From NCBI RefSeq assembly GCF_027744825.2, contig NC_071342.1, positions 18,878,501 to 18,942,500 on the forward strand: a stretch of DNA of 64,000 nt, given 5' to 3'. Shown here piece after piece: positions 2,248-39,300 of the stretch (the first letter of the stretch is position 1; each line of letters begins with the position of its first letter). Source of the DNA: Synchiropus splendidus. Its lineage: Eukaryota; Chordata; Actinopteri; Syngnathiformes; Callionymidae. The notes below the pieces were generated by a model. That model searched no databases and was not told the origin of the DNA. It saw nothing but the letters and a program-made list of their open reading frames with translations. The translations under genes were made by a program, and so were the position numbers.

Positions 2248-2897
<650 letters not shown>

Positions 2898-4486: not shown

Positions 4487-4499
4487 AAATGTGACAGAA

Positions 4500-8541: not shown

Positions 8542-8575
<34 letters not shown>

Positions 8576-10218: not shown

Positions 10219-10226
10219 ATAAGAAA

Positions 10227-11075
10227 CAGTGGCGGCTGGCCAGTAGGAGGCTCTGGGGCACTGCCACACACGTTATAGGGAATTTATTTTTATCACTGTT
10301 GAATACTAGGCACTAACTGTTATTGTTCTGAGTAAGCAAGCGTTCAGAGTTCTCTATAAAAATCACTGTATTTTGGAGGAAGCTGCTTCCTCCTCATTGT
10401 ACACCGCTTGGGGGTCACTGCCAAACACAGACATGAAACAGTTACATGACGCCAGAAATTCATCCCATCAGCACTGGAAGCATTGCCGCCTGAGGTGCAC
10501 TTCTCTGCCGAGTCCCACGTTTCCAAATTAGTCATGGCTCTTCTTCTGCTGACAATTTGCCCTTTTCCACTGGGCGTCCTGAGGCCGTTCCGGGCCCAGC
10601 AGTGACAATCGCATAGACTTTCAGAACCTCTTCCAGTCTGGCTCTAGAATACAGGGCTTTGACATCACTGTAAACTGATTGGCCAATAGAGCCGGGGGCG
10701 TGTGGGTGAGCGCACCTACCTTGACTCTAACACTTACAGGTAAACAACTCAGCAGTTCATTGGTGAAAATGGCTTTACACACAGCTTCAACCATTCTGTA
10801 GAGACAGAGACGTCCAGCCGTGGCCCGGGCATTTCTGTCACCATACAATGGAGGTGTTTTCTTCATGCTCTTTTGACCAATCGTGTGTAATTTTGCAAAT
10901 GGTTACATGGCCATTTCCATTTTTTCATGTAATTTATCACACAACTCTGGAACATCTGAGCACTGCACACACTAAGAATATGATGCGCTGGATGCCGGTT
11001 CCTACTGAATATCTCGGACAGTCGGGCGATTGCTAGGGATTATTTTTTACCTTTGTTTTGCACCAGCCACTACTG
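10227..11075. mobile_element. Non-autonomous hAT element with 8-bp target duplication
   Basis: Left end CAGTGGCGGCTGG (10227) and right end, read inward, CAGTAGTGGCTGG (ending 11075) match at 11 of 13 bases. The 8 bp outside are ATAAGAAA (10219-10226) and GTAAGAAA (11076-11083), 7 of 8 identical, the duplication length of hAT transposons. The 849-bp interior has no transposase frame, so it is an internally deleted or MITE-like copy. Confidence 0.75.
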
Positions 11076-11083
11076 GTAAGAAA

Positions 11084-13551: not shown

Positions 13552-13751
13552 TCACTCGCTGCTCTCCTTCTCCAGATCAACTGGGTCCCCCAGAAGAGCC
13601 TCTGGGATGCCGGCCTCTCCCTGGAACAGCTCCTCCATCAGCTGCTCCCCAGCGGTACCGGCCCGGGACGCCCACAGAGCGGCGCCCTCCCGCAGCCCAA
13701 GCGAGCGCAGCATGCGCGCGTAGTCCAGGAAGGAAGCTTCGATGAGCTTAT
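13552..13751 (-). CDS. wdr11: wdr11 exon 29, last coding exon and stop
   Basis: Residues 1177-1242 and TGA (200 nt): [40 protein letters not shown], then an acidic tail ending DLEKESSE. The ADYARSLKNLGFRQG-type motif of human is recognisable. The exon is much more GC-rich than its surroundings, and the tail is longer than in human. Confidence 0.95.
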
Positions 13752-16700
13752 GTGAGGACAAGGTCAAGGAGAAGAATGTGCACCCAGCAGGATATACAGT
13801 ATAATGTTTTGAACTGAGGCCATAAAGTCAGGGGAAAACATTTTAGAAAAATAAAATGTATTGAAACATTATGAAGTTAAATTAACCCACAAAATTACAA
13901 AAAAATTATATTAATAAAAGTATATGAAAAATGTGTAAAAATGCATATTATGGAAGTTTTTTTTTGGTAAAAAATGTAAGGTATTATGAAACCATGTTTA
14001 AGCAATATTTAAGACTAAATCTCCTGACTGATAAGTTAACATGACAAAGAACTAGTGTATATAAAAGGATATCCATATATTATTTGTATGAACTGATCAT
14101 ATAGAAGTTAATTCACAAGTCATTGTTTAAAGTACAGTATTAAATAAAAAGCACTCAAAGGATATTGGTGGAGTCGTTGGCCTCCATGACGCCGTATTTC
14201 AGACATGCTTCGATGAACAGGGCAGCGCAATCAAACTGCCTCATACTGTCAGGAATAAGAGGCAGAGATACGAGTGTTAGCAGCACTTTCAAGGTGAGAA
14301 GTCTGTACAGCTAAAGGCAGCAAGAACTTGTCAATATCAGGGTAAAAAAGTGTCAGCAGAAATGACACAAAGGCAGATCTGTAAATGAAAAACAGTCGGC
14401 AGGGAAACAAAACAAGACAAAGAGGAATGTAATGGAAAAACAAGTATTAAAGATAAACATAAATGTTGGGTGTTTTGCAAAGAGATATGTGTTTTCAAGG
14501 GCGCCCATTCACAATGACAACCCCAAACTTCAGATGACCCATCCTTTTTTTAAAAACTTACTATTACACCCCAAAGAGTCAAGACTGTTCTTGGGAGATG
14601 GCTCCTCAACTTAGCCTGTGCCAGTTGTCTGTGCATCTCTACTTGTAACAAGAGAGACCCTGAGTCGAGAGGAAGCTGCACTTGCCTGTGGAGCATCTCG
14701 CCGACTTTATAAAAGCAGCCCAAAGAGAGGAGCACCAGGATGGCTTTGGACTTCTGGTTGACCTGCGGGGAGCACAGATGCTCTGCCCATCGCTTCAGCA
14801 CATCAGCGCCCTCTGCTGGATTCAATCGCACCTGCAGTCAAACAAAGCAATGATAAGTGGGAATGCATATTTTCGCCCGGCAACAAGAGAGTGAAGGGAC
14901 AACTACAAAGAGACGAAGGCAAATACAAGCACAGGAAAAAAAGATCACAACATTCAAACAATGAAAAGAAAAGGTAAAAAAAAAACAGCCTGTGTAGCTC
15001 AGTGAACGCATCAACCCCGTGTCCATTCAGCTGTCGTCACTCACGACAGATATATTCTTGTTGACGCAAGTGACTTGCCTTGGCCAGCCAGGCGGCACGG
15101 TTCCACTTTCCGTAGGTCTGCAGGTAGCGACAAGCATCCGCTGCCTTGTCAATCAAGCACAACAGCTGGACTCCCTCTGCCGAAAGAGACGTGCGTTTAA
15201 AGGTCAGGAAAGATTGATCGCCTCAATCCATCACACGCCAGAGAGAAGACTTCAGCCAGCGATACATCTGAACTGTCATTAAAATCAGTCATAAAAAAGC
15301 GGGGCTTTTGGGGAGACATCTACTGTATATTGTATTATTCATAAAAAAGTAATCATTTCAACATCCATGCTGGCATTTTAGTCAACAAACAAATGCTTTC
15401 TCCCTGTACAATGGAGTCAATGACTTGTTCGATATTGAAAAGTTTTAGCTGTAAAATACAACTTCAATTCATTATGGAGCTTGAAAAGATTCAAAAAGTG
15501 TCACATATTCAAAAACGATAATTGGTGCTTCTTCCCTCATCATATTCCAGAAGCTACAAAACATCTACGAGATTTTGGGAGAGGAAAAACAAGGCTTCTG
15601 CTTCAGTCACCAGCATCCATGAATAATGACTTACTCATAGAGATATCTATCAAGCCCAACAACTTTCTCAAATACTCATCGCCACATTGGAACTCAACGT
15701 ACCTTCAAGCTTGCCGTTGGCAATCATGTTGGTGGCCACCAGCTTGATGGTGGACTGCGAGGGGCCCGAGGACGTGATGGTGGTCACCAGACAGGCCTTG
15801 AGAGAGTCGCAGTAGTAGCTGGGGTTGTCTGCGCTGGTCTCCAGCAGCAACTGCACGGCACGGTCCGTCTGAGAGCAGAGACGAGAGACGGACGGCGGAG
15901 AAAACAAGAGACAATTCAGGGCATTAGCAAGCCTCGGGGCGCAGGGACAAAATTGCGAGGGGAAATTATATTTATTCTTGTGCTTTTCGTCAGATTCCAT
16001 TTTGGGGTCAGGACGTGCTGACCCTGGTCTGGCCGGCGACGGGGGAACAACAGACAGCTTTTGATTGTGACCACACTTGAGGATGGCAATTACAGGAGAC
16101 CCTCCATCCATGAGGCGGCGGCGGCGGCAAGAAATCGTCTTTCATTTTCCTTTTTTTTTTCTTTTTACAGACAGTAATAAGAGTTTGAGAGTTTCTCACA
16201 GATGATTGTGACTAAAGTTGTTGCCATCCTTTTTCTGCACCCAGCATTTTATGAGAATTCAGATTAATCGAGGTTGAACCACAAAATTCCACAATTCTAA
16301 TTGGAATAATAAAGCTGTGGGGAAATGAAAAAGTCATTTTTTTAACAGATCGAATGACCCCTCGTCCTTGTCTGATACAGCAGGAGGAATCCAAGTATTG
16401 CTACAGTGGATTTAGGACTTCAAATAATTCTCTGTGAAGGTTTTACTCCCTGTCACACTCTTCGTTCTACCGAGGCTGTTATTTGATGGCAGCTCTAAAA
16501 CGTATTACCATTGACTCTGGAGTTCCATGGTTCCGGAACACTCTGTCAACCACAGCCTGCTATTTGAAAATTCCCAGTAAACAAACACAAAACTGAGAGT
16601 TAAAAAAGCCAACAACAAACACTCGCCAGTAAGTGGCGAGTTTTTTTTTGGCACATTTTGTTTTGTCTTCCCTGAATATAGCTTGTGTCATATTAGCTCC

Positions 16701-19700
16701 ATTTTATACGTTTCAAATCAAATTTTCAGAAAGGCCCTTATTGTTTGTGTGTGTTAAGAGAGTTTGTGCAAGGTTTCAAATCAACAGCCAATCTTTCTGA
16801 TTTGATTTGGCAAATACTGTAAGTCTCTGCAGGTGTCTATCATCCCCCTAACCTTACAATGTAGTATTCTACTGCAATACAGCGGACCAGACCAGCGGTG
16901 CCTGGCCCTCTCTTTCGTTCTCACATGACCCAAACACCTCCAGGACACTGAGACTCACACGTGACATTTCAATTCTCACTAACTGCCCCACGAAAGCAGT
17001 AAGCCAAGATCTATCTATCTAGGCTCCCAGGAAGGAAGACACCTGAAAACCATAACTCATGACAATAACACAGGCTAAGTTTCCATGGTTAAATGTATCA
17101 TCAAAGACTGAAGTTTATCCTTCAAAGGACACAACCACATTTCAGCAGAGGCTCTTAACAAAACAACTTTTGCTGTGTAAATGAACAACCCCTTCTGCAT
17201 ATTGTTGAGGAAGGCGCAAACAGCTACTGTTTTGAATACTTCGGCCTTTGCTCATCTATTTTCCATGTCCATTGGACGAGGCCAAGAGAGGGGAGTCAGC
17301 AGCTTCCTCTGAAGGAGCATGGGGCTGCATAGGACCATCCTCAATGGACATGAGACAAAGCTTCAGCTGCTCATGAGGACACTAGGAGCGGTTTAAATTG
17401 TCAAGGACACGATGTAATCCATCGGTATGATAACTAGCAGCAACTACAGGTATAGGCCATCCCGACAATACGTGACACCCAGGTGATAGCCATTGTAAAG
17501 GGTAGTCGAGAAGAGCTGAGAAAAACTGCAGGATTCCTAGCACCTGCATAGGAAGGCTAGCTGTCTGCTGAGCTGGAGAAAAAGCTCAAGATAGCACATT
17601 GTTGCAACAATCCTGAGGCCAGATAAAAGACATCCACCAGGAGGGGACAATGCATTATGGACAAGGCTAACAAGTCAAAGAGGACCATTGACAGTGGGCC
17701 ATCCAATGCCGGAGAAACACCAACAGAAGAGCCATCAACCACATCAGAGAAGAAGCAGAGAAAGCCTTGAGATGACTCTGGATTAGCAGATGAGATAAGC
17801 GAATGCCACTTGAACACGTGCCGGGCCAGATCAGGCATCAGTGGGTCGTCTGAGCGAGGGAGTTGGATGATGAAAGACCCATAGCACCAGAGGAACCTAG
17901 GGTCGGAACAGGTGCTTCCAAGAGATGTACCCTAACAATAGCAGTTTAATAGTTGGACAGATTGGATGGAATTCAAAGGATACCACTAAAGAAATGCAAT
18001 CTATGGCAAAATTGCCAAAATAGGTTTATTAAAAAATTATGGGATGTTCATATGAGAAATTAAAAATTCTGCTTATGTGAAATATGTCTGACGCAAGTCT
18101 CCTTCAGTGGAGTGAAGTGGGATGAAAGAGTTTTTTCAAGGCAAAGCTTTAAAAATAGTAAAACATTGATGTCTCCGAGAGGAATAATTTTTTTTAATGT
18201 CAAGCAGACAAACATAAATTCAGAACCAATTTTTGATCACGGTGTAGTACTCACCTGGCCCAGCAGGAGGAGCTGGTCAGCACATTTCTTGGTGTGTTCA
18301 TAACTTGAGCGCTTCACCTCCTGCAGGTGAACACGATCCAGTTGGAACTTCTGCGGAGGCACAAAGTGATGCAGTGAGCTTCATACATTAATGTGACCAG
18401 CGTGTACCTCACACACATGCACATAATAAAAAAGCTACGAGACAAATGTGCAGAGTGCAAAATAACACAACTACAAAGAATTGTAATCATACAGTCAGTC
18501 GCCCTCAGTCAGTGTGTGTATGATGGCAACAAATATCACCCTCCATTAATGCTGGGTTACCCCCAATTAATCCACACAGATGGTCTCTGAGGGAGGATCA
18601 CACTGGTCTTCAGTGAGGTATGAAACATTAAATCGCAGCAACAGATATTTCAAAGAATGAGCCATTGCGGGAGCATCATAGCAGCCGAAACAAGAGAGGA
18701 GATCACCCTGCAGCAGACAGTGTTTCTTCATGTGCGTCGTTATCTTACACAGGAGCTTTACATTGTTAGACGAATTCCTGGCGAGTTAGTTGCCGTGGGC
18801 GGAATCCTCGTTCTGATACCAAATGAGTTTATTAACTTCAGAGGTGTATGTGTGTGGGAAATGGAAGTCGGTGGATTGTAGTGATTAAAGTCACGCAGCT
18901 CGCAGTGAAGTTGGTTTTCGACAGCAGGAGCCAAATATAACTGTGGTCCGTCTCTGGGCGACTCTTTGATGCTCCGAAATTTGTCAGCGCAGCGTGGCGG
19001 CTCATTATCGCGAACAGAACGAAAAAAATATATAGCTGCACCAGGACTATTAGGCTGTGTTTATATAGGAACACATGAAATGTTCTTCATTGAAAACATG
19101 AAACAAGAGTAGAGGATATTGAAAACACAAAAACGGCTTTAAGACGAATTCGATAGCAGCCATATCACATGGAGCATCTCTGCATAACCCTGTAGTATCG
19201 TGGGCTGTAACATACATTCTGAAACTCCTACCTGCCAAAGAAGTGAACCAAGAATATCAGCTCGACTGACTCTTTTTATGATGAAGCGCATCAGTTACCT
19301 GCTGTTATCAAACACAAGTAAAGGAAAGAGAGCGCTGGTCTTTCCTTCCTGCAGCTGAGAGATTATAAAGCCAGCGCTAATTCAGAACTAAGGACAGTTT
19401 GCAGCAGGTTTCTCCAACTTAAATAGAGAGAGCCAGTAATAAGGCTCCACTCAGCAAATAAGGGTTAAGTATTAAAGGGTTGTAAGTATTTCTAAAAAAT
19501 ACAACTGATCCATATCAGTGCTCAGGAAGCACATAAACATTAATGTGCCTTTGATGGATGAAGGAGTGGATGGATGGATGGATGGATGGATGGATGGATG
19601 GATGGATGGATGATGATGAAACTTAATTTATATATCACCTTTCATAAACAGTTTAGTTCAATGTGCTTAACATAATGCAATTCAGATCAGATAATCTTAA

Positions 19701-22700
19701 AGATAAAAAACAAATTTAGTATAATAAGATTACTATATTTAGACATAGGAAAGTGCTATCGGTGCGTCCCCGTGAAGGCGGACCATTGTGGGGAGGCACC
19801 AGAAATAACAGTAGCATTTTGTCACAAAAGCACCATAAAAACATACTAATATTAATCGGATCATATGAAAGCAACTAAGCAACTAAAGGATGACCGTATA
19901 GTTGGCTGATGTTAAGCATTGTCATCATGAAGCTGAATATTAAAACCAGTCAAATGTCAATAATTCCTTAGACACTCCCATTTTACATCACCCGTGTCTC
20001 AGGGAAGCATCTCTCTTCAGCTTGCTGCCATGACAACCAGCTGACCATCTATCAGCATCTCCATGTAATCCTTTTGTTGTAAAGCAAAGAAGAGAAATTC
20101 CTCATTACATCGAGAGAGACACCCAAGGTCGCACTCACCACACATCTTAAGTGCTAACAACATTACTGTAATTGCACCCAACAGGCGAGATTTACTGACA
20201 CGATGCGTTGGAAGGAGGACACACCAGCTTGACCACATGTGGGTGATTAGTTTGACCTCAGCGCTAAATGGTTTTTGTACACAACATGACTGAAAAAAGC
20301 GAAGATGACACTTGGATTACGGTCACAGTCCATGCTAGGAAGTATTTAGAGCATGTTTGCCTTGTTTCATAAATGACTAAAATCAAAAACAAACAATGCA
20401 CAAACTACAAACAATGATGCAAAATTACAAAGGAAAGGACAACACCATTCTCTATATCTCAGACCCACAACACATCATTACACGTCCTACTAGTCAAGTA
20501 TAGCCATCAGTACCGAAGAAGTCACCTCATGGCCCAGAAACACACAGCAAACTATAAGTCAGTATAATGAAGCCGCAAGCTTATGTAAGGAAACCTGACT
20601 TCAGTTTCAGTGTGAGGCTCACACTAGATCCCAGGTATGGAGGAGACATCTGCCTCCTTCCACATTGAATTTCATCTTCTGCATCATCTCCAATGTGTGA
20701 CCCAACACGTGTCCTCAGTGTGATACCATGTTGATTAAAATATGAGATGACTCACACTGCTCTCACAACTCACGACTGCATACTTATTTGTGCGATTTCA
20801 CAATCCTTTAAGGCTCTCTGAGACACGCAGTTTCTGTTGTTCCCCCAAAACCCATGAAGTTCTTCAATAAAGCAACAGATAATATGAAATCGCATGAAAT
20901 CTGAGTTTAATCTCAATAGCAGTAGATGTGTTTGTCCACAAGGACCAAGGTATCTCCTCCATAGCTGATCTATTGGAAGCCACTGGGGGAAACACTTCAC
21001 CATCACTGACCTGAAAGTAGGAGCTTTCACAAAGCACGTCGTGGCAGATGTCCAAGTGGTTCTGAGGAGTCGCCTGTGCTGCTTCACCTTGACTCTGCCC
21101 TTCTGTTGTGGACACACTGAGCTGACGAGACTGGGCAAACAACTGGAGGTAGTGGGAGGCCACGGTCCAGAACTGAAGGTCAGACTCGTCCCCAAAGAGC
21201 CTGTGAACACACACATCAATGTCACACAGATTTCAAGGAATACAATTTCCTCTAAGGACCACACTTTCAGAGTGTAATCCTTGTCACCACATCGAGTGGC
21301 ATCTTTTGGCATATCTTCTGCTGGGCTTTTTAACATATCTCCCCTGGCATACAGCTGTTGCTAGGCTACCAGAAACCATTAACAATGGTGTGATAGCTCG
21401 TCCAGATGCAAAGGCGTTGCAGAATCACGAGCTCCTTGCAAGAACGCCAAGTAGATATTTAGAATGTCAGGAAGCCATCCTTCATGCTTCACAGGTAAGG
21501 AACACTTTTAATAACAGGATTCAGGGACTGAAGTGCACATGACTGACTGCTCCAAATTCGTCAGCTGCCCGAGGGAAAAGTGTAGCGGAGATGAGATCTT
21601 TGGGCTGCTGAGAAGCAAAAGCATACATTTCCTCAGAATCTGTAATTTTGGCAGGTTGGAAGTTTTAAAACCATTCCCCTGACTTTGGCTGCCAAATAAC
21701 TATCACCTTCCTAATGTGGCATATCGATTTTTGACTGAACAGATGTGGTGAGGTCACAGGAAAATTGAAGCACCTCATTATTTACAAACATTTAATTTGG
21801 CCCCAGAAGGTTTGGGGGTTTTCTCAGTCGTTGCACTCCAAAAATTAAACTAGGAAGTGACTGCTGACCTTAAAAAAAGTGAATTATTCATGAAGTGTTC
21901 AATTTAAATATAATAAGTTTCTATAGATTTGTATTCAGTGAATACCAACCCTTTTAACTAGGTCCACAATACGACCAAGAAGCAGTTTATTATAGAATGT
22001 AAGTAACCCTATACGTTTACTTATAGACACTTATTGATACTTATAGATAAACTCACAAACACATTCATGTTTCAGGATAGCTGACTGTGCTGTGGGAGGA
22101 AAGCTGAGCTCTTACTAAAGACTTATAACTGAAGTATGAGATTCACTCCAAACTCAACTCACCTTCAAATATGTCAACTGTGTAATGAGAAGTAGGATCT
22201 AAAGGCGCAATGACTCCTTATTCTTTTCTACTTTATTTAGTTGAATTCAAGTCTGCTGTTTTCGTGAGGGTGATGCCAGTTAAGCCCTCATTCACTCGGC
22301 AACATTTGTCTTGATCCCAATTCATTATTGCAGCCCGCTTGTTGAAGTCAATTCTTATTTTGTAGTCACTATTCACACCTCCAATATTGGGCTTTCAAAA
22401 GCTCACCATTCAGAGGAAATACATAGTTATGCAACCATCGACTGCCAAACTTTATAAATACAGTTCAATAAAAAGTCCAACACTGAAGTGAAAATATTCC
22501 TTGATAGACTTGAGAGACATTTAATTTTGTTGTTAACAAAGCTACAGCTCCAGACGGGAAACCATCTTTAATCTTTGCTATAGCAAAAAAATCAGATTGA
22601 GTCCCCGAACTCACATAAGCCAAGGAGAGATCTGTGCGTTCAAACATTGATGCCCAGGAACAAATAACTCCTAATGAACAGCAAACGCCTGTGTTTCAGT

Positions 22701-23333
22701 TCACCTTGAGACTAAGAGGCAGCGTTGCAGCAGGCTGAGTTCCGGGTCCTGCAGCACACTCTTCATGTCACTGGGGAGGCAATCAGGGAAAACAATCAGT
22801 ACGCACTCAGAGCCAGTTACTCTTCTGCAGCGCAGCAGGTCTGGCGGGGCAGTTACAGGACGCTCCCCTCTTATCTCTCACACCAGCAGACCTGCTCTGT
22901 GAAGCTGCGTGTAAAATAAAGCTACTTCACATGAGAAATTGCAGAAAAAGATATATTAGCATATGAAACAGCTCCTGCCATTCAACACATGCTAAACAGT
23001 AACACCATCATTGCTGAAAAAACTACTCACTTAGTCAGGGAATTGAGCTGCTCCTGGATCAAGCCCTTTATCTCCCCCTTCTCGTTGTAGTCTCTGGAAC
23101 ACCAAGCCATAATCAGTGAAATGAACCCCCACAACTTTCTGAAGCAGCGCCTGACCTCATGGAGAAGAGGGGGGCGCTATTTAAGTGAATTGCCGAGTTT
23201 AATTATACCAAGGTCGGGGTGTGTTTGGGAAGTTGGAGCAGCCTACTATTCCACTTGCGAAATGCAAAAGGGTCAAATGCAGTTTAAACCTTTGAATTTC
23301 TGCTTTGAAATGTTCTTTGAATTTCACACTATA

Positions 23334-23382
<49 letters not shown>

Positions 23383-26300
23383 CAAAGCAGAAAACTTTTC
23401 CTGCATGTATAAATAAATCTAGTAACACTGCCTATAATGGCGAACACAGGAGAGAGAAGATAAAAGAGGAGATAAAACTCTCACACTTGAGTGATGTCCA
23501 TGGTGAAGGTTCCGGACCACGGCTGCAGCAGCAGGAAGGCTTTCAGTGTTAGAGCGGCTCTGGGCAGCAGAAGGTAGGGACACCAAACTGAATCTGGACA
23601 AATTACACAAGGCATCAATCCACAGCAGCCACAAGTCTAACCTGAAGTTTGATAGAGCTTTTAAGCGCCGTCTCAAAGGCATCTTCTCGCAAACCTGTCA
23701 AATCCTGTTCGTCCATTCGGTAGCTAGCAGACTTCATCGCCATCTCCAGAACCCGGATGCAGCCGTCATCTGAGGCCAGCACAACTTTGTCGGATGTGCA
23801 CCAGTCGATGTCAAGGACACGGTAGTTGACATTGCGGCCGATTCGCATGCTGCTCACCATTTGTACCTGAAGGAAGGCAAACAAAACTGTGAGATGGAGA
23901 GAGGTGGTAATTACCCTGGTCGATATTCCTGCTTGGATCACGTCCCCCAGTAGTTTGCCTGAAGACTCATCGTTCCTTGTTATTCAACAAAACCCAACAG
24001 AGAAGAATCATTCGACTTAGTTGCCCTCTACTTACATTAGCGGCTCTATCATTGACATAGCTGATACTTGCATGTTAAACGACAGTTGTCCCAATAACCT
24101 GACATTATTTATTTATTGCATTACAACTCCACAACCGAGGAAAGACAAAGCACCAATGGGACAGACCTAAAATAGTTTCCTGAAGGTTCTCATGCATCTA
24201 AAGAACATAACCTTTATTTTTAAATTTCAACTTAATATGTTTCTATTTACTGTAACTTTGTTTAATAGCGTTTTTAGGGAGCACTGCAGTGCCAGATCAG
24301 GGTTGGGTTTTACATTCCCAAATAATTCATTTCCCAATACTGATAAGTATTTTCAGATCAGAGAAAATGGATGCAAAATGTAGATTCGTCCATAAATGGC
24401 ACAGAATGTGAGGAGCACTGACAACCTGTAATGCCAGTGCCTGCAGTATTCTAATACGAGGTCTAAGGCTCAGGCCACTCTGTCTTGATTCACTGGATTC
24501 ATTCCATCATCCATAACCTTTGACATTTTGGTCCACACATGCATATATTGGACTTCAAATAAGGCTCCATCCAGCCCTAGGCCTGTGAGCCCTCACCTCT
24601 GATAGTGTGTGGCAAACTGAACTTGACTCCCTAAACCCAGTGTTTACTGACATGTTGGATCATAAAACCATGATTTCAGTGGTGGTATTGATGTGCTTTT
24701 GTCCTACTTGTGTCACCATATTACATTCATGCTGTTGATCCGACCCTTGTTACATCACATAGATGAATTAACTTCATTTTCTTCTGATTTATTTTTTTCT
24801 AGCATATAAATAGTACAAACATAGATACTGTAACACTAGACGAATAAAGGTCAGACACTTGTTGCTACAATGCCTTCTCTCAAATATTATTTTAGACTCA
24901 GACACCTGAAAATAAGAGTCAGCTTGTCAGTAATAGTTTTGACTTCTTGTTAGATTTTGTTGCTCTTATGGGTGTTTGATACGTTTAAATATGAAAATGT
25001 GTTCTCTTGCTTTATCTTTAAAGTGAGCAACACGACCAGTGCAATGTTTTTTTGTGAAAAAAATGTGTCAGTACCAAAATATTAAAACAATGTATCACAC
25101 ACATAACTAGGGCTGAGTATTGCTGGGAAACTGGTGACAACACGTTTCCTGATGCACGACATCTCCAGGGTGGAAGCTTTAGTACTACTGAAAAACCCAA
25201 ACACAGTCAATTACTGCTTTTTTGAAATATCCATAAGGAAAATCTAATATATCGATAAAGTATTGTGAATTAATAGCAGTCAATTGGCTAGGCAAGTGAA
25301 GTTAATGACAAAAAACAAAGCAGTTCAAAGAGCACTCGGCTGTCATGAAGACATTCAGTCTCTCATGATGCCCTTAAACAGGGTTGAAAAAGAAAGTAGG
25401 TGTGTTTCATCAGGAGCGAAGGAGCTCATCCATCCTGAGGCAAGTGTTTAAACATGTCAGTGGGAACCTTTCACGGCTAATGTACATGTGTTGGCTCTGT
25501 GCTGTGTAATGTGTTGTTAAAACAAGACAGGACGATTACAGCATTTACACAACAGCATCTGCATGAGAGCGTTTACTTGGAAAATATGCTGTAATGCAAA
25601 ACCTCCACGCTCCAGTGATTACGGTGCCACAGGCCGACATTAAACCTGCCAGTGTAAATCTGTTAAACCTTAAACTGTTGAGAGTTGCACAGCACATTCT
25701 CTCGCAGTGTGTTTAAGTCCAGGGAACGCACGCCGTCACCTTCGACAATGCTGACATAATCGTTGACAGCAGACATAATTTCGGATGCCTGACCTCTTTG
25801 GTGTCCCACACCTCGGCTCCGTCAGTGTACATCACCAGCAGCTTCTGGTTGCCCTTTCCTGGTGCAAAGCGGATCTTCTTCACCCAGCCACGATGAGTGG
25901 GTATACCCCTTTTTTGGAGAAAAAAAAGAGACTATAATTTGCATCTTCACTGTAGCATCAATTACGTAGAAATCAATAGTGTTTAAAATAAATCGACACT
26001 TCAATGGCGCTGGGGAAAAGTAAGAACCTACATTTTATCTTCTTACTTTGACAACCATAAAGAATATTTTGGCAGGACCTCACAGGCAGAGAAGTAATAT
26101 CAAAACATAACAGTGTTTATATCTTGTAGGCTTTGTCATTAACGCTACAATCTTCAAAAACTTGTCTTTACTTTCTCATTTGTCAGAAGTCATTCATGGA
26201 GATTTTTTTTCCTGGACCATTGTAGGATATTTGTTCAACCCGGATTGTGAGCAATATATTAAACACTCACAACAGACAAACAAAGCATTATAGTCGAGAG

Positions 26301-27323
26301 TCTCATCCCACCCCCTCCCACAGCTCTGTCTCACTGCAACAAGAAAAGGTCAGCAAATCAACGCCACATAGATCAGACACATTTTCCATGATTACCTTTC
26401 ATAAACTCTTGAAAGGAAGATTTTCCTTCTCCTTGTTTATTTCAAGATCACTTGATCAAACTCTATTTTTACCCGAGGTTGCTCTTGGCCAGTACCTATC
26501 AAAATGAGTTGATAATTAACAGTAAAAAGCTCTGTGTTCACACTCTTGGTTCTGATTGCCCAACAGATAATGAAGATGTTACCAGTGCAAGAACAGAGCT
26601 TGGCAAATATGTCTTTAAAATTGCCGTCCCATCATTCCGGAATGACTTTCAAAAGGACATAAAAATGTCTGATCTGATCACCCTTGGGAGACTTTAAATA
26701 GCACAGAGAGTGATGCTCTCCTGGTGCCTGCTGCTGCTTTAAGTGAGTTGAAAGTCATGTTAGCGTGGAGGACTGTTTCATCTCTTTTTACCAGGTTACA
26801 TGAACATTATTGTTTGATCGAATCAGTTCACACATCACTTGCATTGAGTAGATTATTGTAAATAACCACGCCATGAGTGTGTTCTTTTACAGAGCTTTAC
26901 ACAGCCACCTTGACATAAGAGTTACAGTGCTAAAATGAAAATAAAAGTTGGCATGTGAGGTGGCGTTACACTCAACAATAAACTCAGTTACAGTGATGTG
27001 AAATGAAACTAAATGGTTCCCTTGATCCTCCACAGCCCAGTCGCCCAATCTACATCTATAGGCTGTGTGCAGGTTTGTAAACGTAACATAGAAAACACTG
27101 AGTATAAAGTGAGATGAACATCATCGAATCAAAACCTGGCACTACCTTGACAGACGAGCTTTGAGGTCCCAGAAGTTCAGGTTCCCGTCGACGTCTCCAA
27201 GCACCAGTGTGTCTCCTTTCCAGGCGATGCAAGCGATACTTCCCATACTCCCCTACAATGGAAAAAAAACATATAACAACATTACTTCACATGATTTTAG
27301 ACAATGTTGAGAACTGGCAGCAT

Positions 27324-27373
<50 letters not shown>

Positions 27374-30300
27374 CAAGGGAAAAACTTCTTTCTCCTTATG
27401 TAAGACAGTTGTTTGATTCAGTGGTTTGGGAAATGCAGCTTTAATAACTCATTCCTCTTTTGAAAAGGCAGTAAAGATGAGATGAATTGGAAAATCTCTC
27501 AGGCAGCTTAAGCCTGAGAAAGATTATAGCACCTGACAGAGTGCTGCTCCTGTGTCAGCTCAGCTTGGCACCAGTGCAGCAGATGACAGGATAAAACTTT
27601 TCAGGTCACCACAGTTGGTTTCCTGATGCAGATATAAAGATTTTCTATTATCCCGAGAGAAGCGTAAAAACCTTTAGAGTATGCAAATCTTGAAGCGATG
27701 AATCTGCAGCCGTCAAGAAGATAAGACTTTAAATCCCCAGATAAACCTACGGTGTCTGTTTCTCTAGGCTGAAGTGATGCAGGTACTGAGTGAGGAAAAA
27801 CGCAGGCGGCAGAACAATCCAATCTGCTTCTTTGAAATGGACTCTTTTTTTTACGCTCTAAGCAATATTGAAGCTTTTGCAATCTGCTGAGAGATTCTGA
27901 AGAATGAGATGGATAAGCGAATGTGAGGGCGAATGAAATTGTCATTTCTTTGGAAAGCTCAATTGAAAAAAACAGAAAAGCTATTTCAAACATTATGATG
28001 ACTTAAATATTTCAAAAAGGGGATGCTGCAGCTTTACATTTTCATGGGGTGGAGCACAAGTGTAATCCTGATGACAGACCTATAAGTGATCTGCAAATAT
28101 ATTAACAACTGTATTTATTAAAAGTCCAAAAGAATAAAGGGATCATGATGTTGATTTTCCTTTTTTAAACATTTGACAGTTATTTGACTTTCTTCCAGTT
28201 TTCCTCCCACTCCAAACACCTTGTTGTTGGACCCTCCCATCATCTTACTAGAATATTTTTCCACTTTTTAAAACCATGCATTAACGTTAACATTGCCACA
28301 CAAGTTCTACAATGTGCTGCACCAAGATAGTGGTTTCACATTTAAACCTTGTCTTTGCTTGAAAAAAGACTGCAGCCTTAGTAATATGAACATGAGCGTA
28401 ATGAAATGTCAGAGAAGAATATCTCAATTCATCTTGTTTAGATCTTCTTTTCCATTTCCTGTCCTCGATTAAATAGTTTCTGATCATAAATCAGCTTGTC
28501 TCCCCGTATTGACAGTCTAACTTATAAAGCAAACAGAGTCATCAGTCATTTCTTGTCCTTTATCTCAATATGAAGAGCCCCATTTATTTTCCTTTCCATT
28601 CTTGTCACCTGATTCATTTTTTTCTTTTCTGGGAAATTCATTGGGAATGCTCTGAATCACCACAAATTTTTAAAGACACAATCTTATCTAAATTATTGAC
28701 TTTTCATTCCGAAGATAGACAGTCTAGACTACCTGTCATCCGTCTTGTGGTACCGGGTCTCCTGGAGGGTTTGTTTGTTTGTTTGTGTGTGCCGTTTTAT
28801 ACCTGTTGGCTCTTAAAGTTAGCTTAACAACCCCAGGCACTACAAGGATTTTTTTTAATGAATTCAAAACACACTCTTTTCCTCCACCACATTTTACGTT
28901 TTCCCCAGAGAATAATGGATGTCAGAGTGTCATCACTGTGTCATCAGCCTTCACCTAGACACTGTTTGTCCCCTCCAGGTGTCTCAGGCAAACAGAGGAT
29001 GCTGCAATATTTACTTGCTAGACATATTTCCCAGCTATTTATTCTACAAATAGATAGTCATAAAGAAGGGCTGCAGGACATGTATCAAATATGCAATGGT
29101 GTTTTTGGAATCTTGCCATATTGGTAGCAACCAGAAAAGTAAATTCTGGGATTTAAAAAGTGAAGAATTGAACGCAGGGTTGGCTAAAGGATGCCCAAAC
29201 GATTTCATGCTCAACAGCAGATACACCACTGTCCCTAGTATGACCCGAACTCTCTTACAGTACTTCTCTTTCTCACTGAAGCCCAGGGTTGCAATTCAAG
29301 ACACTGATGGTCACACAATGATGGCCGCTGGGGTGTCGACAAAAGTATCACCTTTGCACGCTTAGCTTAGAGTACTATTAAGTATCGCTCTTTATAAACT
29401 TTGCTCCCTTTTCTCATTGAAAGCCTGAGGGCCGAACATTAACTTCAGGTTACCCCGTGATAGGAAGCGGTAGACAGCCATGTGCTGACATGGTCAGCTC
29501 ATTGTTGGCTCCCATTATAGAAAATAAAGGGAAGGGAATTGCACCTGGGACCACACAAGCAAGTCACATTTTAATTTATTGGTGGAGGACGGTGGTGCTG
29601 CGATGGAACAATTCCAGCCAATTACTTTCTCCTCCTTTTTCTGCATAGAGAAAGACCGCAGTGAGCCACTGTGTTTTGAACTGAAGGACTAATTAATCCT
29701 CGGAGGGCTTGAAGAGTCGCTTCTCACATTGTCCCCCAACTTGTGAACATTAAACCCAGATAAAAGAATGTCTTAATTGAAGGGACGGTCTCTAAACCTG
29801 CTTGGCGGAAGTTAATTCACTGTTTGATTAGATATGTAGAAGTGCTTATCCTCATCCATTTGAAGTGAACCAATGATTAGTGGCGGCTGAGGGCAGATGA
29901 AAAACATAATGAGTCCATGTTCACTGAACAAACCTTGGGTGATCAGGTATTAGCAACAAGCCAGGGCAAGTTGGACAACTATCCTTTGGATTGACCTTTG
30001 ACTCACAAGTAATGTGACCATTCCAACGGAGCACAACTTATCAGCAGAGGTCACCAATGAGCGACCTCCATCACAGAGATCTGGATGCATAATATCGTCA
30101 TTATCAAAAGTTCAACAGTCACCACTCTGTGTGTATAGCACAGCGATGGGTCACAGAACAATCTGTTAAAAAAGATACACAAGGGTTGCGATTCATGAAC
30201 TGTGGGTAAGTGTACCCAACCAACAACCTGAATTGAATGAAGTCTCGTGACTCACATCAGGTGGAATCCGTGCTCCGTCTTTGACTGTGTTGCCCTCCAC

Positions 30301-33300
30301 GGTGATGTGATACACCTGCCCATCTGTGTCAGTGAACACAAAATGCTCCCGGGCTGAAATGGCCTGGCTCGTCTCCGACTTGCTCTCAGCATCCTGCAGA
30401 AGGCTGGAAAGGGAGTCAATAACAGTTGTCAATCTTGGTGTACAAGGTAAGACCTTTACGCATGATGGCAACATGCATGGGCTCATTAACGGGAAACGTT
30501 GCTGGCCTCGGCAGCCTCCCACGTCTTTTGTACTCTCACAGTTGATAGTGTGAATGGAATGGCTGATGAAACACAAATGAAGTACAGTATTGTAGCGTCT
30601 GCTGGGAGTCACAAAAAACAGCCGTTCTGTCGTTGACAATCTTCTTTTTAATTCCGTTAAACTCTGTGGATTGGTCTCACAGAAACAACAGCAGCTCGTG
30701 GCTCTCTTTAACAACTCGAAACAAAACTCCCTCTCCCCTTCAGCGCAGCCCCTCGCTCCACCCCCACTCACCCGTCACCACTGGACCCTTACAGGAACAG
30801 CATAAACACACACCCAGAACGTTACAGTATGTATGGATGTACTTGTTAGGTTTTTGGGAAAATATTTTGTTGATGAATTGAGGATGAGGGGAAAAGAGGA
30901 AAGCATCAATCTAAAAGCCATTCAATGATCTCTCAGTGTCTCCCAAAGCCCAATAACAGAATTCCTTGCCAGCCATTACAGTTTAAATTAGCTGAAGGTT
31001 GGTGCATGTTAGAACATTCACCTCCATAAAAATACTTAGCTCCTCGCCTTTGACAAACGTACAAGATGACGAGCCATGACTGCCCTGAATAGTGCCGTGT
31101 TTGGAAATTCAATATAAATTTAAAATGAGACTCCTTTTAAAGGGGCCTTAAGAGAATGCTATCATAGGCAGATGGAACAATACGATATCCGAGATATCTG
31201 AGAGACATTTTTAGATAAATCCTAGAGCCAGACTGTTGCCCTGCTCTGTTGAGCAGGAGACACACTTGAGCTTGGCTTCCCAGGAAGCAGATATGCCATT
31301 GCGTATTGACATTGTCACAACGTGGGGAAAAAAATAGATTCTGGGCGGAAATATTGATTTCAAATTGTCAAGAAAAAAACAAGTACATTTGAGATTCATG
31401 CCCTTGTTCTTTAACGGTAAGAGACAGTGAGTGCTTGCTCTGTGAGGTTTTGATCTTCAATGGTGGCTAGTGTTGGAGATGTTGAGTCAATATGTCTAGT
31501 AAGACTGTGATGATTTATTTTGGGGGAATTTAGTGAAGGTTGGGAGTAGAACTGCCATGTCTGTAACTCCAGACTCCCTACGTAGCTCTGCAATTGTGTC
31601 GGCTCTGTGTACCTTGCCTGCTTGCATTTATCGAATTCTGGGTGGGTTTTAAGCAGTAAATCACATATTGTGAGGAAACTGGAGTAGCTAAGGGAGGACA
31701 GGCCAAATATAAAACCTACACACAGAAAGGAACCACTTGCACACCAAACACTGGCTTTGAACCTTCAACCTCCAAAAATGTTAAGAAGCCACCCCACAGT
31801 TTCGATGCGTATTGAATCTAACTAGCGCTAAAGATTGAAGGCTTGTCTTAGTCCCCTTCCTGCAGATTGGAATTTAAAGGCGCGTTTTTGTAATCACCTT
31901 TGTAGGGAAAAAAAAAGAAAAAGTGTCGATCAAACTTCAACAAAAAGTGGCTTAGCATGACATTTAATTTGACCCCCCGCTTAATTATCAGCAAACTTCA
32001 TTTCAGTCTCTTTGAACCTCCATATGGCTGTAGGACAAAGCAGCCGAGGCTATTAAAAGGACATTTTTATATTCTAAATGACGGCAACAAGAGAACAATG
32101 AAGACACTTAACAGTTGTGACCTGATCACAGAGGACTCGACACTGCTCTGCTCAGCGTCTGACACAGTCTGCCGCGCCATGGCTTCCCTTGCAGCCATCT
32201 GCTTCTTCTTCAGACTCTTGAGGTTGTGAGACGGTGACCATTCCTTTGAAAAATACACATATATAAGGGAACAGCCAGAGGTGTGTGTCAAACAGGAGTC
32301 TTGAGAGCTAAAAAGAATGTTGTGGATGGTTGCATAAATGGCACTAATGTCGGCATGATTTACCTTTACTTCACTTCCTACCGTCCTATGGACGCTGTGT
32401 GGCTTTAGCCTGAGTCTCAGGGTTGTAATCAATATGGAAATAAGACAGCAATACGGTGCTTAGGGGAGACCGGCATACATTATTAAGGATACTGGCGGTT
32501 TTATTTGCAGTGTAGAGGATTTTATAGTTGGACTGTAAAGTTTGTCCTGCATAACTCTTCTTTTATGAGCCTTTCTCCAGCCTAATGAAGCTATGGTTCT
32601 GTGCTGAGCACGGAGGATTTGTTCAGACTAATCTCTGAAATGGTTCACACGCAGACAAAGGCAGAGGGGTTGAGAGAAAAGCCAATGACGGGTATCAGCA
32701 CAGCATCAAGCATAGCTTATTGATTCTTTGGATTTCCATTATGATTTATTGGTGCTTCAGTTATAACTGTGTCACTTCATACCAGTGCAGTGACTGTGGG
32801 GAAATTCTTGGCCATCTCTCGGAGCAGTGTCCCGGTCCTGATGTCCCACAACTCCAGCGGCTTGTCTCTGAATACTACCACCAGGTACTGTCTGTGGATC
32901 AAAAAACAAAAATAAAAGGAGGAGTAAGATGAAAGCTATTAGTAAGCTGAACTCTGTTGATTTAATAGTTTATCAGATTCTACAGTCAAGTTTCAATGAA
33001 GCAATATCCAACTACAAGGTGGCATGATGATGTGTGTACTATGATCCACTAAAGATTCACTAGAGCAAAAACATAGAAATATTTTGGGCACATTAAAAAG
33101 CAAGGACAATGATTTATTGAGAGCACATCCAAATTGCAATATGCAATGAAAATACAACTACAGGCGTCACTAAAGAGGCTGAAAAACAAACACGTCAACA
33201 GAAACACCAGTGGATTCACACAACTGTGGATGCAGAGCACGCTGCAGGTATAACACTTTATCTGTCTCTGCGTCCGTGAGTGCTGTAGATACAGTTGTAC

Positions 33301-36300
33301 AGACGTCAACTTCGAAAAGACAGAAAATTGTACAGCAGGCACTTATTACTGTCATGTGATGACGGTGACCAGACCAAAGAGGGAGGTTGGGTTTTTCAAT
33401 TGCAACCTTGGGAAGTCAACTGTAACTGAGCAATTCATCAATGGTGCGAACTTCTAGCATGTGCTATTTCATGTATGTGAACAAACATGTGAGACACAGA
33501 GAGAGACAGATTTATGAAACAGGACAAATTACACAGCCAGTTTTTGCATTTTCTGTATGCAATTAAAACAATTTACGATCTGTGAGTAATTTTTTTTTCC
33601 CAATGCCGAGGAGGAAGGACACTTACTTTAGATGAGACACTTTAATCATTTCAATGGGCGGCTCATCGTTTCCTCGCTCTCCTCTGAAAGCGAAGCATCT
33701 CCCTGTAAGACAGAACATAAACCCAGTTAAGAGTTTCAGGGAGATATTGGAGACAGCTGATTTCTAATTGGTACCAAGGTCAAAGGCTTGGGGCCCAGGA
33801 ACGTACTCTTGACAACCTTCCGCCCACCATGGCAGACATATGCAAAGCACCTAAACCTAAACGTCCTTTGGTGACATTTATCTAAGAGAGTGCTGGTGAG
33901 AGTTAGTCTGTTAGAGATACACAAGCGACAGCGCAGCCTGAGGTGTTTTTTAGGCAGGTGATGACCTTCACGAAACCCAAAAGAGATGGCTGTTTAACGG
34001 TGCGGGAGAAAGTGAAGCACAAATAGTGAGGGAAAACTCTAAAGAGCACTCAAGACTAATGCAGTGTTCTTCTTTGTGTTACTCGGTTTATCTCACTGGG
34101 AGATATGAAGAGCCTAATGAGTCACAACACTTGGATACACAATGATCTATGCAGCATTTTACAGAACATTAACCGTGGCACACAGGGTACAGAGAAGACA
34201 CATGTATCCTCATTTATTTAGTGTGAGGGACATGATTTAGATGGTGAAGACAGTCACCTCACTTGACGTTCCTTGCTTATGAGGGAACTGATCAGTGTGT
34301 TCTCGGACAGTGTGGCCCTACCAGTAGCGCAACAAACCGAATGGCAGTCTCATGTGAAAGCAAGTGACTGCAATGACAGTAGTTAATACGTTTATAAAAA
34401 CTCCTGGTGTGGCCTTTAATTATAACTATCAGTGCTTTTGTCAGACCTAATCCGTCAGTCCGTATTCCATCAGCAAATATTTCAGCAACCCCACATCCTG
34501 AAAACGACGGCTACAAACAGCTACTGTGGCAACTCCGAGCTGCCAGAACACCTAGCGCAGCTCTGTTTTTATTTATCAGGCACCTCGTGGCACAGGTGAT
34601 TTACCAAACACATAGGACTATAGAAAGGCACAGCAGAAGTCAATGAATTTTTTTTGCACATAGTCCGCTTCCATATCCGTCTTTATGTGCACTATGTGCA
34701 TAGCCCTCTTCTCCTCTTTCCTACACTGTCTGTTAAAAAGAGTATTTTGTATTTTGCATTTTAGATTTTACATTTTTAAGTTATAATTTTCCAGAATTAA
34801 TAAAGTTTTTCTGATTCTAATAAGAGTTGTGTCTTCATTTATCTCATCAGGTAAAGATTGACTCCCCCTTACATGATTGGAATGTATTCTACTAACTACT
34901 ACAACTATCACTGCCAGAGGAAACTTAAAATATGGTATGTATGAACCAGAGTGAGAGGTGGACTCAAGTGACACCTCAATGTGATTGCACTTCGAGAAGC
35001 TGCATATCTTCAAAAGGAGCCCAAAATGCAAGTCATATAGAAGATGAATGAGAAGCCAATGATGTGAACTGCTAAAAATAGCATCCTACTCTCCAATCCT
35101 GCCATTTATGTTGTCATTCTTTGCTTCAAACTTGGTATTTGCAATTTTTCCAGCGGACAGCATTAGACATGTATACACATACCTGTCCATTGAGTTATGT
35201 GTGTCAAGCTCATAGTGTGACTTTCAAAGGCAAGTTTTCAATGCCATGACCTTATCGTTGCGAAGTTTGGACCAGTCTATCAGTAACCAAAAGTGGAACA
35301 AGAATCTCCTCCGAGGACATATAAGGATATAAAAAGGAAGCAAGAAGAGTTGCTATTTCCCCTCCGCAGAATTCATTACAGATTTGCTGGTAGTTTCCCA
35401 CGAGTAAAATTGTCTTGGTGTGTCATACCGGTTGGCAGGTTGACGTGCTGCAGCTCGTTTCTGACAAGGCCCATGTTGTTTGGAGAAGACGTCGCAAACG
35501 AGAGGAAACTGGTGAGGCTCACCCATTCGATACCCCTGTGAGGAAAAGGACACAAAAGCGCAGGCAGACGTTTGTTTTCAATAATTCAGAGGAAATACCA
35601 CTGCATTTGCCGAAAGACGGCAATTTAGCTTCCTCAGTAAATCAAAATGTTGCAAGCAAGGAAGTAAGGAAAAGGCTACCATGAACTCTAAATAAAAGAA
35701 GCCTGTAAATGAAAGCAGGAGAGAATATTTTGGAGGTGTTTGCCCAGCCCTGGAGGAAGCACCTGGAATGAGATGGTAAATTGGCTGATGATTAATTAGT
35801 CAATTTCTCCACTGAATGCAAATGTGATGCTAAGTAGCGCGAGTCCTTTGGCATGGCTCTACTGGGGCAACCGAGCCTGGTGTCATTTGCATTCCGCCCC
35901 TCGCTCTCTCCCGTCAGCAGACCAAAGAAAGCCAAAAATAAAGTCCAGATCTGACAGCACAATTTAGATGCTAATGTTTGGGTTGGAGTGTGTTGAAGTT
36001 ATTGATTTATTGTGCCTGTGTGACTCAGTCAAGTTGGCTCTGGTTTAAAGTAACTTCCCTCATTAATGTAACCTATCAGCTTGTGCTTGAACGGATGGCG
36101 TTCGCCTTAAGTCAATCCCTTAAAAGCACTAATTGATTCAATCTCAAGCTGAATTAATTCCAGTGGATCAGACTTTTCACGATCTAACGTAGCGATACAC
36201 AACACAGATTTGACAAAAGACGCATGAAGACACATCTGAGATGCTCAACTTCTTATTACACTTGCGTTTCCAATATATTAAAATACGCAACGAGCTTCAA

Positions 36301-39300
36301 ATCAACCAAGTTCTACTTTTGAAAATCTTCAATGAAGGTTTCTTGATGCCTTGGAGATCGCTGGTAGTTGCAGTGAACAGGGAGGGATGTCTCTTCCCCT
36401 CAGCCAACATTGGTCATATTTCTGTTGCAGGCCAAAATCTGTCACACAAAGGCTTGACTAACTCCCTTGCTGCTTCGCTCACCATCTTCCCCTGTCAAGT
36501 CATCAACCAAGCCTCGCGCCCAGACGACCGCTGGGTCACCATTTATATTCCACCTGTCTTCGTCACGCTCTTTGACCCAATCTTTACAACCTTCTCTCTT
36601 CTTTTGGTATATTTCTTCAATTATTTGGAGAGAAGGCAGGCTGAATGAAAACAACATATTTGGCTGAAGCTTACTGAGGTAGAAGTGGAGCCCAGGTCAA
36701 AGTCACAAAAGTTAAATGATTCAAATGTAGTGTCTATGACTAGTCTATGTCTTTTGAGGTTGAAGACATGGTCCATCCACTGGGACATGGCTGGAGACAT
36801 CCACACAATGTGACCTGATTTGCAGAGAAAGGTGCCTTGAATAGATAAACTTATTTGTGAGATGGAAATCCAATATAACGTGCACATTTTATTAGTGCAG
36901 CAGACCTTTAAGGTCAAGGCTGGTGCATTAATAAAATAAATATGCTACCATGTTTAAAGTAGAACCAGGAACAAGGGAGTTATTAAAATTCTTTCCCTCA
37001 CATCTGCAAATGAAATGGAGGCAAACAAGAAGAGACAAATTACAGCAAGATGATATTTAAGTCAGCGTTTACATACGATTTTGTTTAGATTGTCCCAGTG
37101 GACCGTAACAACCGCTCTTCTTTTCCAACACTGAACTTCTCCAGGAGATTCATGAGTGACGGCAGTGTTAATTAGCATCATGAATTGAAAAGGTTACCGA
37201 GTGATTCACAAGGACCACTGCGAAAGTGTGAAGACTTGGCTGGAACTAATTGATTGTGACGGGGGATGCTGAAACTGGAAAAACAAAAGTACATCTTTGT
37301 TGACTTTTCGGAGCAAGAAATATGCAACAGCACCACTCGGTGTGATGCTGAAATCCCAGGTGTTACGAAGAGCCGGCGAGCCCACGCAATAGCAGAGTCA
37401 GCAGTGTGATGGAAAAACACTGTTTACTTCACAGTCAGTTTTGTATTCAAATTGGACGGGTATTTGCATAATTTCTAATTTAAGTTTCTTGCAGGGTGAG
37501 AAGTGTGGAAGCTGGGTCAGTTACAGCACATCTTTTGTTTGTAGTACATAATTTAGTGATAAAGAAATTGTCTTAACTGAAACAATGTAACCAGTGTTTT
37601 AGCGGCTGAGTTTACCAAGATAGATGTTTAACAGTGTCATTTAGATCATTAAATACTGTATCCAATGAATCGGCGTCATCTTCCTCCAGCTAAACCTATC
37701 ATGGTCATCCTCCACTGTCACACCTGTCCTCATTCACCACATTTGTGATGGCTCTCTTCCACCATCTCCAACATTCCTAGTCCAACTTGGTGTCTCCTCT
37801 CAACGTGTCCAAACCATCTAGCCTCACTAACCTTCCACCCAAAGTTCTCCAGATGTCCCTCTGATATACAACTTTTAGATCTTGTCCCCTTCACTCACAA
37901 CCTCGGCATGTTCACTTCTGACTCTTTGAACTCTGTAACGTATCTAAACCGGACATCATCACCACTATTAGCCAACATCACTGCCCTCAACTCAGGCACA
38001 AACACTCCAAATTCTACCTGCTCAGCTAATTTAATGTTGGACAAAGACCTGTCATGAGATAACCAAAAAGTCATCAAGTCGAATGATAATAATAGATGAA
38101 GTCAATCATTTTATCAGACGTGTGTGGAGCAACATAAGATAACATAGAAAATGAGGAGCAAAGAATGATTGCAAAGTCAAATGCCACAACCCTGGAATCA
38201 GAATCATTTGGCTGCAAACCTAATATGACAACAGTAATGTGGCAACATGTGGTGACACCAAAAATAAAATCAAACGACTTGCAAATGTTTTTTTAATTTG
38301 AAACAGTGTAGAGGCAATGTTTTAATACCTTATCATGAAGTCAGTGGCTAATTTAGTCTCAAAATAATGTTTGTAATTTGTTGGACAATATATTGACCAG
38401 TAATAAATGCGTTATTGCATTTCTTTCTACATTATTTAGTTACAATTGTTTAAAGGTATTGCTCATAACAAGCACTTTTTGAAATACTGCACCAGAAACA
38501 CTGGCTCTTAATATAACATATTTCCAATTACACTTTCTTTTTTTAACTGGGACCAGTTATTTAACTGCCTGACCAGTTAAATAACTGGTCAGGCCATTTT
38601 GAGTAACAAGACACACAAGCGGAATTTCATACCAGAAACAGTAAAGCTGTGCACCAATTGAAAAAGCCCAAACTCAATGACAAAATAAGCAACCTCACCT
38701 GACTTCACAAGAGTGGACACTGAGCTCCTTGTGGAGAACCCCACTGGTGAGGTTATAGACCAGAACTGAGCCATTACTGGTTCCTAGGGAGAGGACAGAG
38801 AGAGAAAAAAACAAGATTGAAGGCTGTGCACAAACAGACACACATAAAAACCGTTGCTGGAAGCAAGACAGTCATTTCAGCAGCATCCAGCCTCCAGCGT
38901 GATCACAGAGACGTCGCTTCAGTGTGACACTTCGGTGTGTTGTCTTGCTGCGATAGGTGTGGAGCGAGGCAACACATCAAAACAATCTTTCAGTACAGAG
39001 CCATGGAAATATGGCTTTATTTCATCCTCTGCTACGAACTTCCAACTCTGTGCTCCCACTCCAACTGAATAAAAGTGGCAGAAGATATACAGCAGTCAGA
39101 ACTGACGCGTGAGAGTTTGACAAGCCGCCATAAATCTATTACAACTCAAAATGTTGTCAAGGAATACAGCGTTGCTTACCTGGTACTTGTTTGGAACTTG
39201 TCTTCGAGGATATATTACGCACATTTCCATTGTTTATAATGAAGGAATCTTAGCCAGTAAAGCTTAATGCTGCTCATCAGACCAGCTGACTGCACTAATT

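What the first reader, a model, noticed from the sequence alone, without database searches (positions are those of the whole stretch)
13752..15078. Three consecutive non-GT introns (GC-AG, GC-AG, AT-AC) at the 3' end of wdr11
Seen directly: introns 26, 27 and 28 start with GC, GC and AT, while the other 25 start with GT. Each assignment is forced by conserved protein on both sides and exact phase. GC-AG introns are about one percent of vertebrate introns and AT-AC far rarer, so three in a row is highly unusual. The three could be spliced slowly or in a coupled way, making the C-terminus a natural control point (inference).
Basis: partly seen in the sequence, partly recalled or inferred. Interest (0 to 1): 0.85.

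Follow-up and report, generated by a model that had tools for sequence, protein, structure and literature searches.

The report
Known U12 intron beside two GC-AG introns
The last three introns of this wdr11 gene do begin with GC, GC and AT, but one has the full marks of the minor-spliceosome intron already known in human WDR11 and the other two look like ordinary strong GC donors, so the row of three is best read as a coincidence of known kinds.

Summary
On the minus strand, wdr11 introns 26 (15078..14832), 27 (14685..14246) and 28 (14165..13752) are GC-AG, GC-AG and AT-AC; no GT-AG junction in frame was found for them in the ranges searched. The other 25 of 25 introns are modelled as GT-AG.

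The three are not one phenomenon. Intron 28 is a textbook U12-type intron: 9/9 to the U12 5' site, 8/8 to the branch consensus. PMC11039992 lists human WDR11 intron '28-29' as U12-type. U11, U12 and U6atac genes are in this genome. Introns 26 and 27 are U2-type donors, AAG|GCAAGT and CAG|GCAAGT, off consensus only at +2, as PMC2490688 describes for GC-AG introns.

Under independence, published GC-AG rates and assumed intron numbers, a genome should hold 0.09-0.68 runs of three non-GT introns and 11-44 adjacent GC-AG pairs. Slow or coupled splicing was not testable and has no direct support. With no RNA and no other vertebrate DNA, the age of the GC donors is open.

The parts
13552..59352 (-). 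wdr11 coding span, 29 exons, Met at 59352, stop 13554-13552; 1242 residues by adding 29 (exon 1 and first base of exon 2) to 1213 (rest)
   Evidence: exons 2-29 joined: frame kept, one stop, at the end; exon 1 joined to exon 2; solved WDR11 chains match drafts of the two halves at E 9.8e-287 and 0
15079..15176 (-). exon 26 (98 nt)
14832..15078 (-). intron 26, GC-AG, phase 0, 247 nt, donor AAG|GCAAGT
   Evidence: 3 candidates, none GT-AG; donor 8/9
14686..14831 (-). exon 27 (146 nt)
14246..14685 (-). intron 27, GC-AG, phase 2, 440 nt, donor CAG|GCAAGT
   Evidence: 3 candidates, none GT-AG; donor 8/9
14166..14245 (-). exon 28 (80 nt), between a U2-type 3' site and a U12-type 5' site
13752..14165 (-). 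intron 28, U12-type AT-AC, phase 1, 414 nt
   Evidence: only candidate; U12 5' site 9/9 and branch site 8/8
14157..14165 (-). U12-type 5' splice site ATATCCTTT; +4..+9 complementary to AAAGGA in the genome's best U6atac match
13763..13770 (-). U12-type branch site TCCTTGAC, 12 nt after its A to the intron end
13552..13751 (-). exon 29 coding part (200 nt) with the stop codon

Best explanation
Two unrelated, known kinds of non-GT intron lie side by side. Intron 28 is the conserved U12-type (minor-spliceosome) intron of WDR11, here with AT-AC ends: U11/U12 recognise its 5' site and branch site, and U6atac then replaces U11 at the 5' site (established knowledge of the minor spliceosome). Introns 26 and 27 are ordinary U2-type introns with GC donors in an otherwise perfect AG|GCAAGT context that tolerates the one U1 mismatch, most simply GT donors changed by T-to-C at some time. 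All three are normally removed to give the full C-terminus, and their adjacency is a coincidence. Shown: boundaries, frames, U12 motifs, presence of U11, U12 and U6atac genes. From the literature: the U12-type intron of human WDR11, GC-AG tolerance and rates. Inferred: actual splicing in this animal, and the T-to-C origin.
For: Boundaries and frames. Intron 28 scores 9/9 at RTATCCTTT and 8/8 at TCCTTRAY with 12 nt between the A and the end; introns 2-27 (26 introns) reach at most 6/9 and 7/8. PMC11039992 lists 'WDR11 introns 28-29 (U12) and 27-28 (U2)' among introns assayed by RT-PCR across the branch junction (legend passage); I read '28-29' as between exons 28 and 29. Numbering agrees: human intron 23 is at c.2931+1, i.e. 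after codon 977 (PMC8560748 passage), and intron 23 here falls after the glutamine aligned with residue 977 of the solved chain. U12 (130.8 bits), U6atac (132.2 bits, and a second match of 44.8) and U11 (98 bits) are over their cut-offs in this genome, and the best U6atac match holds AAAGGA, complementary to intron positions +4 to +9 (the same six bases also occur in flanks of the fetched loci). GC donors 26 and 27 match 8 of 9 consensus positions, missing only +2, as PMC2490688 describes (section 0, part 1 of 2). Chance: GC-AG 0.77-1.4% (human, zebrafish 1.2%, Tetraodon; PMC7367187 table 2), AT-AC set at 0.05-0.1% (PMC13149111 gives about 0.12%, passage) and 200,000-250,000 introns assumed: independence gives 0.09-0.68 runs of three non-GT introns, 0.014-0.12 of this mix in any order, 11-44 adjacent GC-AG pairs per genome.
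Against: No RNA. No other vertebrate DNA: searches found no relative, in collections not meant to hold vertebrates, so conservation of the GC donors is unknown; if both were old and shared, 'coincidence' would weaken. This exact mix is expected only 0.014-0.12 times per genome. An unconstrained U12-branch-site duplex test did not single out intron 28 (rank 11 of 28). Intron 26's donor ranks 20th of 28 by U1 pairing energy (27's ranks 8th). PMC2490688 itself reports GC donors enriched in alternatively spliced genes and offers selection for alternative splicing as one cause, though it calls neutral fixation in a strong context more plausible. The U4atac search did not complete.
Confidence: 0.9

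Rival explanations
1. The three introns form a coupled control point: weaker GC donors and a slow U12 intron are retained together, giving transcripts with other C-termini.
For: Retention changes the protein: intron 28 kept replaces the last 65 residues by IL, intron 27 kept puts 45 other residues in place of the last 93, intron 26 kept puts 13 in place of the last 141. GC-AG introns as a class have weaker sites and are over-represented in alternative 5'-site events (PMC7242645 passages). Work cited in PMC6717393 found minor introns on average retained more than their neighbours, and that paper finds shorter ones retained more often (passages).
Against: Early stops follow from retaining most introns. 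Both GC donors match consensus at 8 of 9 positions. PMC6717393 itself finds many minor introns spliced efficiently compared with their flanking major introns. No held paper has both WDR11 and GC-AG (0 papers).
Confidence: 0.05
2. The two GC donors are old and shared by many fishes, so the row is a conserved trait of the gene rather than a recent accident (not exclusive of the best explanation as to how each intron is spliced).
For: Some GC-AG introns keep their place from human to zebrafish, e.g. NDUFAF6 and ABI3BP (PMC7242645 section 19).
Against: GC donors also arise often: 298 GT>GC against 40 GC>GT events inferred in primates and rodents (PMC2490688); BLVRB and AZI2 have GC in mammals but GT in chicken, fugu and zebrafish. 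Not testable here.
Confidence: 0.3
3. One or both GC donors are assembly errors or a minor allele.
For: Single-base difference; one assembly only.
Against: Both lie in otherwise perfect AG|GCAAGT contexts; the assembly is contiguous (583 Mb in 96 contigs) and the joined coding frame of exons 2-29 is intact.
Confidence: 0.04
4. A regional bias (for instance GC-biased gene conversion at the 3' end) fixed both T-to-C changes.
For: Third-position GC of exons 25-29 is 0.70-0.87 against 0.44-0.81 in exons 2-24.
Against: The ranges overlap, and introns 26 and 27 have 0.42 GC, within the 0.37-0.47 of introns 2-25; intron 28 has 0.27.
Confidence: 0.1

Closest known systems
U12-type intron of human WDR11, listed as '28-29' in PMC11039992
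   Same: same gene, same ordinal place, minor-spliceosome class
   Different: the human terminal dinucleotides are not in the passages I saw
U2-type GC-AG introns of vertebrates
   Same: GC donor in otherwise near-perfect consensus, AG acceptor
   Different: nothing intrinsic; two adjacent ones next to a U12-type intron is the only oddity. In human and mouse the great majority of such transcripts have a single GC-AG intron and few protein-coding genes more than two (PMC7242645 section 19)

Membership tests
U12-type intron (28) | 5' splice site RTATCCTTT at +1 | tested here: met
   9/9; introns 2-27 at most 6/9. Consensus string recalled
U12-type intron (28) | branch site TCCTTRAY close to the 3' site | tested here: met
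   8/8, 12 nt from the A to the end; introns 2-27 at most 7/8 in their last 45 nt. Consensus string recalled
U12-type intron (28) | minor snRNA genes in the genome | tested here: met
   U12, U6atac, U11 over cut-off; U4atac search unanswered
U12-type intron (28) | branch site pairs best with U12 snRNA by energy | tested here: inconclusive
   unconstrained duplex ranks it 11 of 28
U12-type intron (28) | removal depends on the minor spliceosome | not testable with these tools
   no RNA; for human, PMC11039992 labels the intron U12-type and reports that RBM41 preferentially pulled down U12-type lariats (passages)
U2-type GC-AG intron (26 and 27) | GC donor with otherwise strong consensus, AG acceptor | tested here: met
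   AAG|GCAAGT and CAG|GCAAGT, 8/9 each; acceptors AG
U2-type GC-AG intron (26 and 27) | not U12-like | tested here: met
   U12 5' site match 2/9 for both, branch-site match 6/8 for both
U2-type GC-AG intron (26 and 27) | junction seen in RNA | not testable with these tools
   no transcripts available
WDR11 | sequence match along the protein to solved WDR11 | tested here: met
   last exons (244.6 bits)

The most novel reading that the evidence does not exclude
The GC-GC-AT run is conserved across fishes and its two GC donors are tuned to the pace of the U12 intron, so that introns 26-28 are held back and removed together and the WDR11 C-terminus is switched by minor-spliceosome activity.
Probability: 0.04. 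Interest if true: 0.6.

Novelty: new member of a known kind. Interest (0 to 1): 0.2.

Why it matters
Little beyond annotation: a gene finder that allows only GT-AG junctions would be expected to lose or distort the last 141 residues of this protein (inference). It is also a compact case of an exon (28) flanked by a U2-type 3' site and a U12-type 5' site, next to two GC donors, which could serve as a natural test of whether neighbouring donor strength affects minor-intron splicing.

Tried and rejected
The same gene end in other DNA: genome contigs (26 stretches matched a pattern, 0 relatives) and viral contigs (12 stretches, 0 relatives). These collections are of bacteria, archaea and viruses, so this says nothing about conservation among vertebrates.

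U12 branch-site duplex energies did not separate intron 28 from the rest (rank 11 of 28); an unconstrained duplex accepts any register, and I rely on the consensus counts instead. This choice was made after seeing the result.

Regional GC bias was looked at and is not convincing. Rfam scan of the window at gathering scores: 0 matches.

Literature: WDR11 with 'U12-type intron', 'minor intron' and 'minor spliceosome' each gave 1 paper, PMC11039992; WDR11 with GC-AG gave 0; a search for consecutive non-GT introns gave 46 papers with at least 3 of 4 terms, of which 20 were listed, none of the 20 holding 'consecutive introns'. Searches found the background papers. The library holds open-licence papers only, and supplementary files could not be read. 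Papers were seen as passages, except PMC7367187 section 17, PMC7242645 section 19 and PMC2490688 section 0 part 1 of 2.

The GC-AG rate of this genome itself was not measured, for lack of a protein set. Fugu's published 5.7% was left out of the estimate; it would make such runs much commoner.

Full report
What was claimed. Introns 26, 27 and 28 of wdr11 begin with GC, GC and AT, the other 25 with GT; this is highly unusual and may be a control point.

Check of the observation. I built the gene on the minus strand from peptides matching solved WDR11 chains (8xfb/8z9m and 24id/24ip; taken to be human, the listing gives no species). The model has 29 exons, Met at 59352 and a stop at 13554-13552. 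Exons 2-29 joined keep the frame with one stop, at the end; exon 1 joins exon 2 in frame. For introns 2-28, GT-AG, GC-AG and AT-AC junctions that keep the frame between hand-chosen conserved anchors were listed and scored against the link in the solved chain. Introns 26, 27 and 28 had 3, 3 and 1 candidates, none GT-AG; the best are 15078..14832 (GC-AG), 14685..14246 (GC-AG) and 14165..13752 (AT-AC). For introns 2-25 a GT-AG row was best in 23 of 24; in intron 7 I took GT-AG (123) over an AT-AC row (127), because the proteins differ there by an indel. Intron 1 (59266..57394) is GT-AG.

What intron 28 is. It begins ATATCCTTT (9 of 9 to the U12-type 5' site) and has TCCTTGAC (8 of 8 to the U12 branch consensus), with 12 nt from the A to the AC end; among introns 2-27 the best values are 6 of 9 and 7 of 8. 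The genome has matches over the family cut-offs for U12, U6atac (two) and U11; only the best candidates are scored in such a search, and the U4atac search did not complete. The best U6atac match contains AAAGGA, the exact complement of intron positions +4 to +9; six bases alone are weak evidence, since they also occur in flanking DNA of the fetched loci. An energy-only duplex test of the branch site against the genome's own U12 did not pick out intron 28 (rank 11 of 28). In human, a figure legend in PMC11039992 lists 'WDR11 introns 28-29 (U12) and 27-28 (U2)' among introns assayed by RT-PCR across the branch junction (passages). Exon numbering agrees: human intron 23 is at c.2931+1 (PMC8560748 passage), after codon 977, and intron 23 here falls after the glutamine aligned with residue 977. 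So intron 28 is most likely the conserved minor-spliceosome intron of WDR11. PMC10639083 quotes 91% of human minor introns as conserved in zebrafish (passage).

What introns 26 and 27 are. Their donors, AAG|GCAAGT and CAG|GCAAGT, match the U2 consensus at 8 of 9 positions, the miss being +2, and match the U12 site at only 2 of 9. By U1 pairing energy they rank 20th and 8th of 28 donors, so the first is below the middle and the second above. PMC2490688 (section 0, part 1 of 2) describes this compensation, frequent GT/GC switching, and 298 GT>GC against 40 GC>GT events in primates and rodents. It also reports GC donors to be enriched in alternatively spliced genes.

How unusual is the row. Table 2 of PMC7367187 gives U2-type GC-AG shares of 1.2% in zebrafish, 1.4% in Tetraodon, 5.7% in fugu and 0.77% in human; the section warns that many non-canonical boundaries in some genomes, such as chicken and Tetraodon, come from imprecise annotation. 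PMC13149111 (passage) gives AT-AC about 0.12%; I had used 0.05-0.1%. With 0.77-1.4% GC-AG, an assumed 200,000-250,000 introns and independence, one search gives 0.09-0.68 runs of three non-GT introns per genome, 0.014-0.12 of this exact mix in any order, and 11-44 adjacent GC-AG pairs. The row is rare for one gene but of the kind that a scan of many genomes will meet. Since one member is inherited, the residual surprise is a pair of adjacent GC donors next to it.

Mechanism. The best reading is that the major spliceosome removes introns 1-27 and the minor spliceosome removes intron 28, exon 28 being defined by a U2-type 3' site and a U12-type 5' site (inference from established knowledge of the two spliceosomes). 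Retention would shorten the protein to 1101 residues plus 13 (intron 26), 1149 plus 45 (intron 27) or 1177 plus 2 (intron 28) (adding the 29 residues before that call's start). This is what retention of most introns does and is no evidence of regulation. PMC6717393 (passages) found many minor introns spliced efficiently compared with their neighbours, but also cites work in which they are on average retained more and finds shorter ones retained more often, so slowness is neither shown nor excluded.

What could not be tested. No other vertebrate DNA was within reach, so the age of each GC donor is open; no reads or transcripts were available. Verdict: real, correctly described, and explained by known kinds; low interest.

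Noticed in passing
window 37733-37900, minus strand, inside wdr11 intron 11: A peptide piece resembling the end of a LINE reverse transcriptase (RWFGHVERR; resemblance recalled, reading frame), probably a decayed transposon.
   Followed up: no
window 2187-2985, plus strand: Long low-complexity tract reading as YLSIYLS/CLSVCLS, probably a short tandem repeat.
   Followed up: no
window 1-13000: No coding exon recognised by eye among 25 stop-to-stop frames of 90 aa or more; shorter exons were not looked for, so this is weak.
   Followed up: partly
L004 (G000 C15:2963938-2964020): A second, weaker U6atac match (44.8 bits, cut-off 33), perhaps a pseudogene.
   Followed up: no
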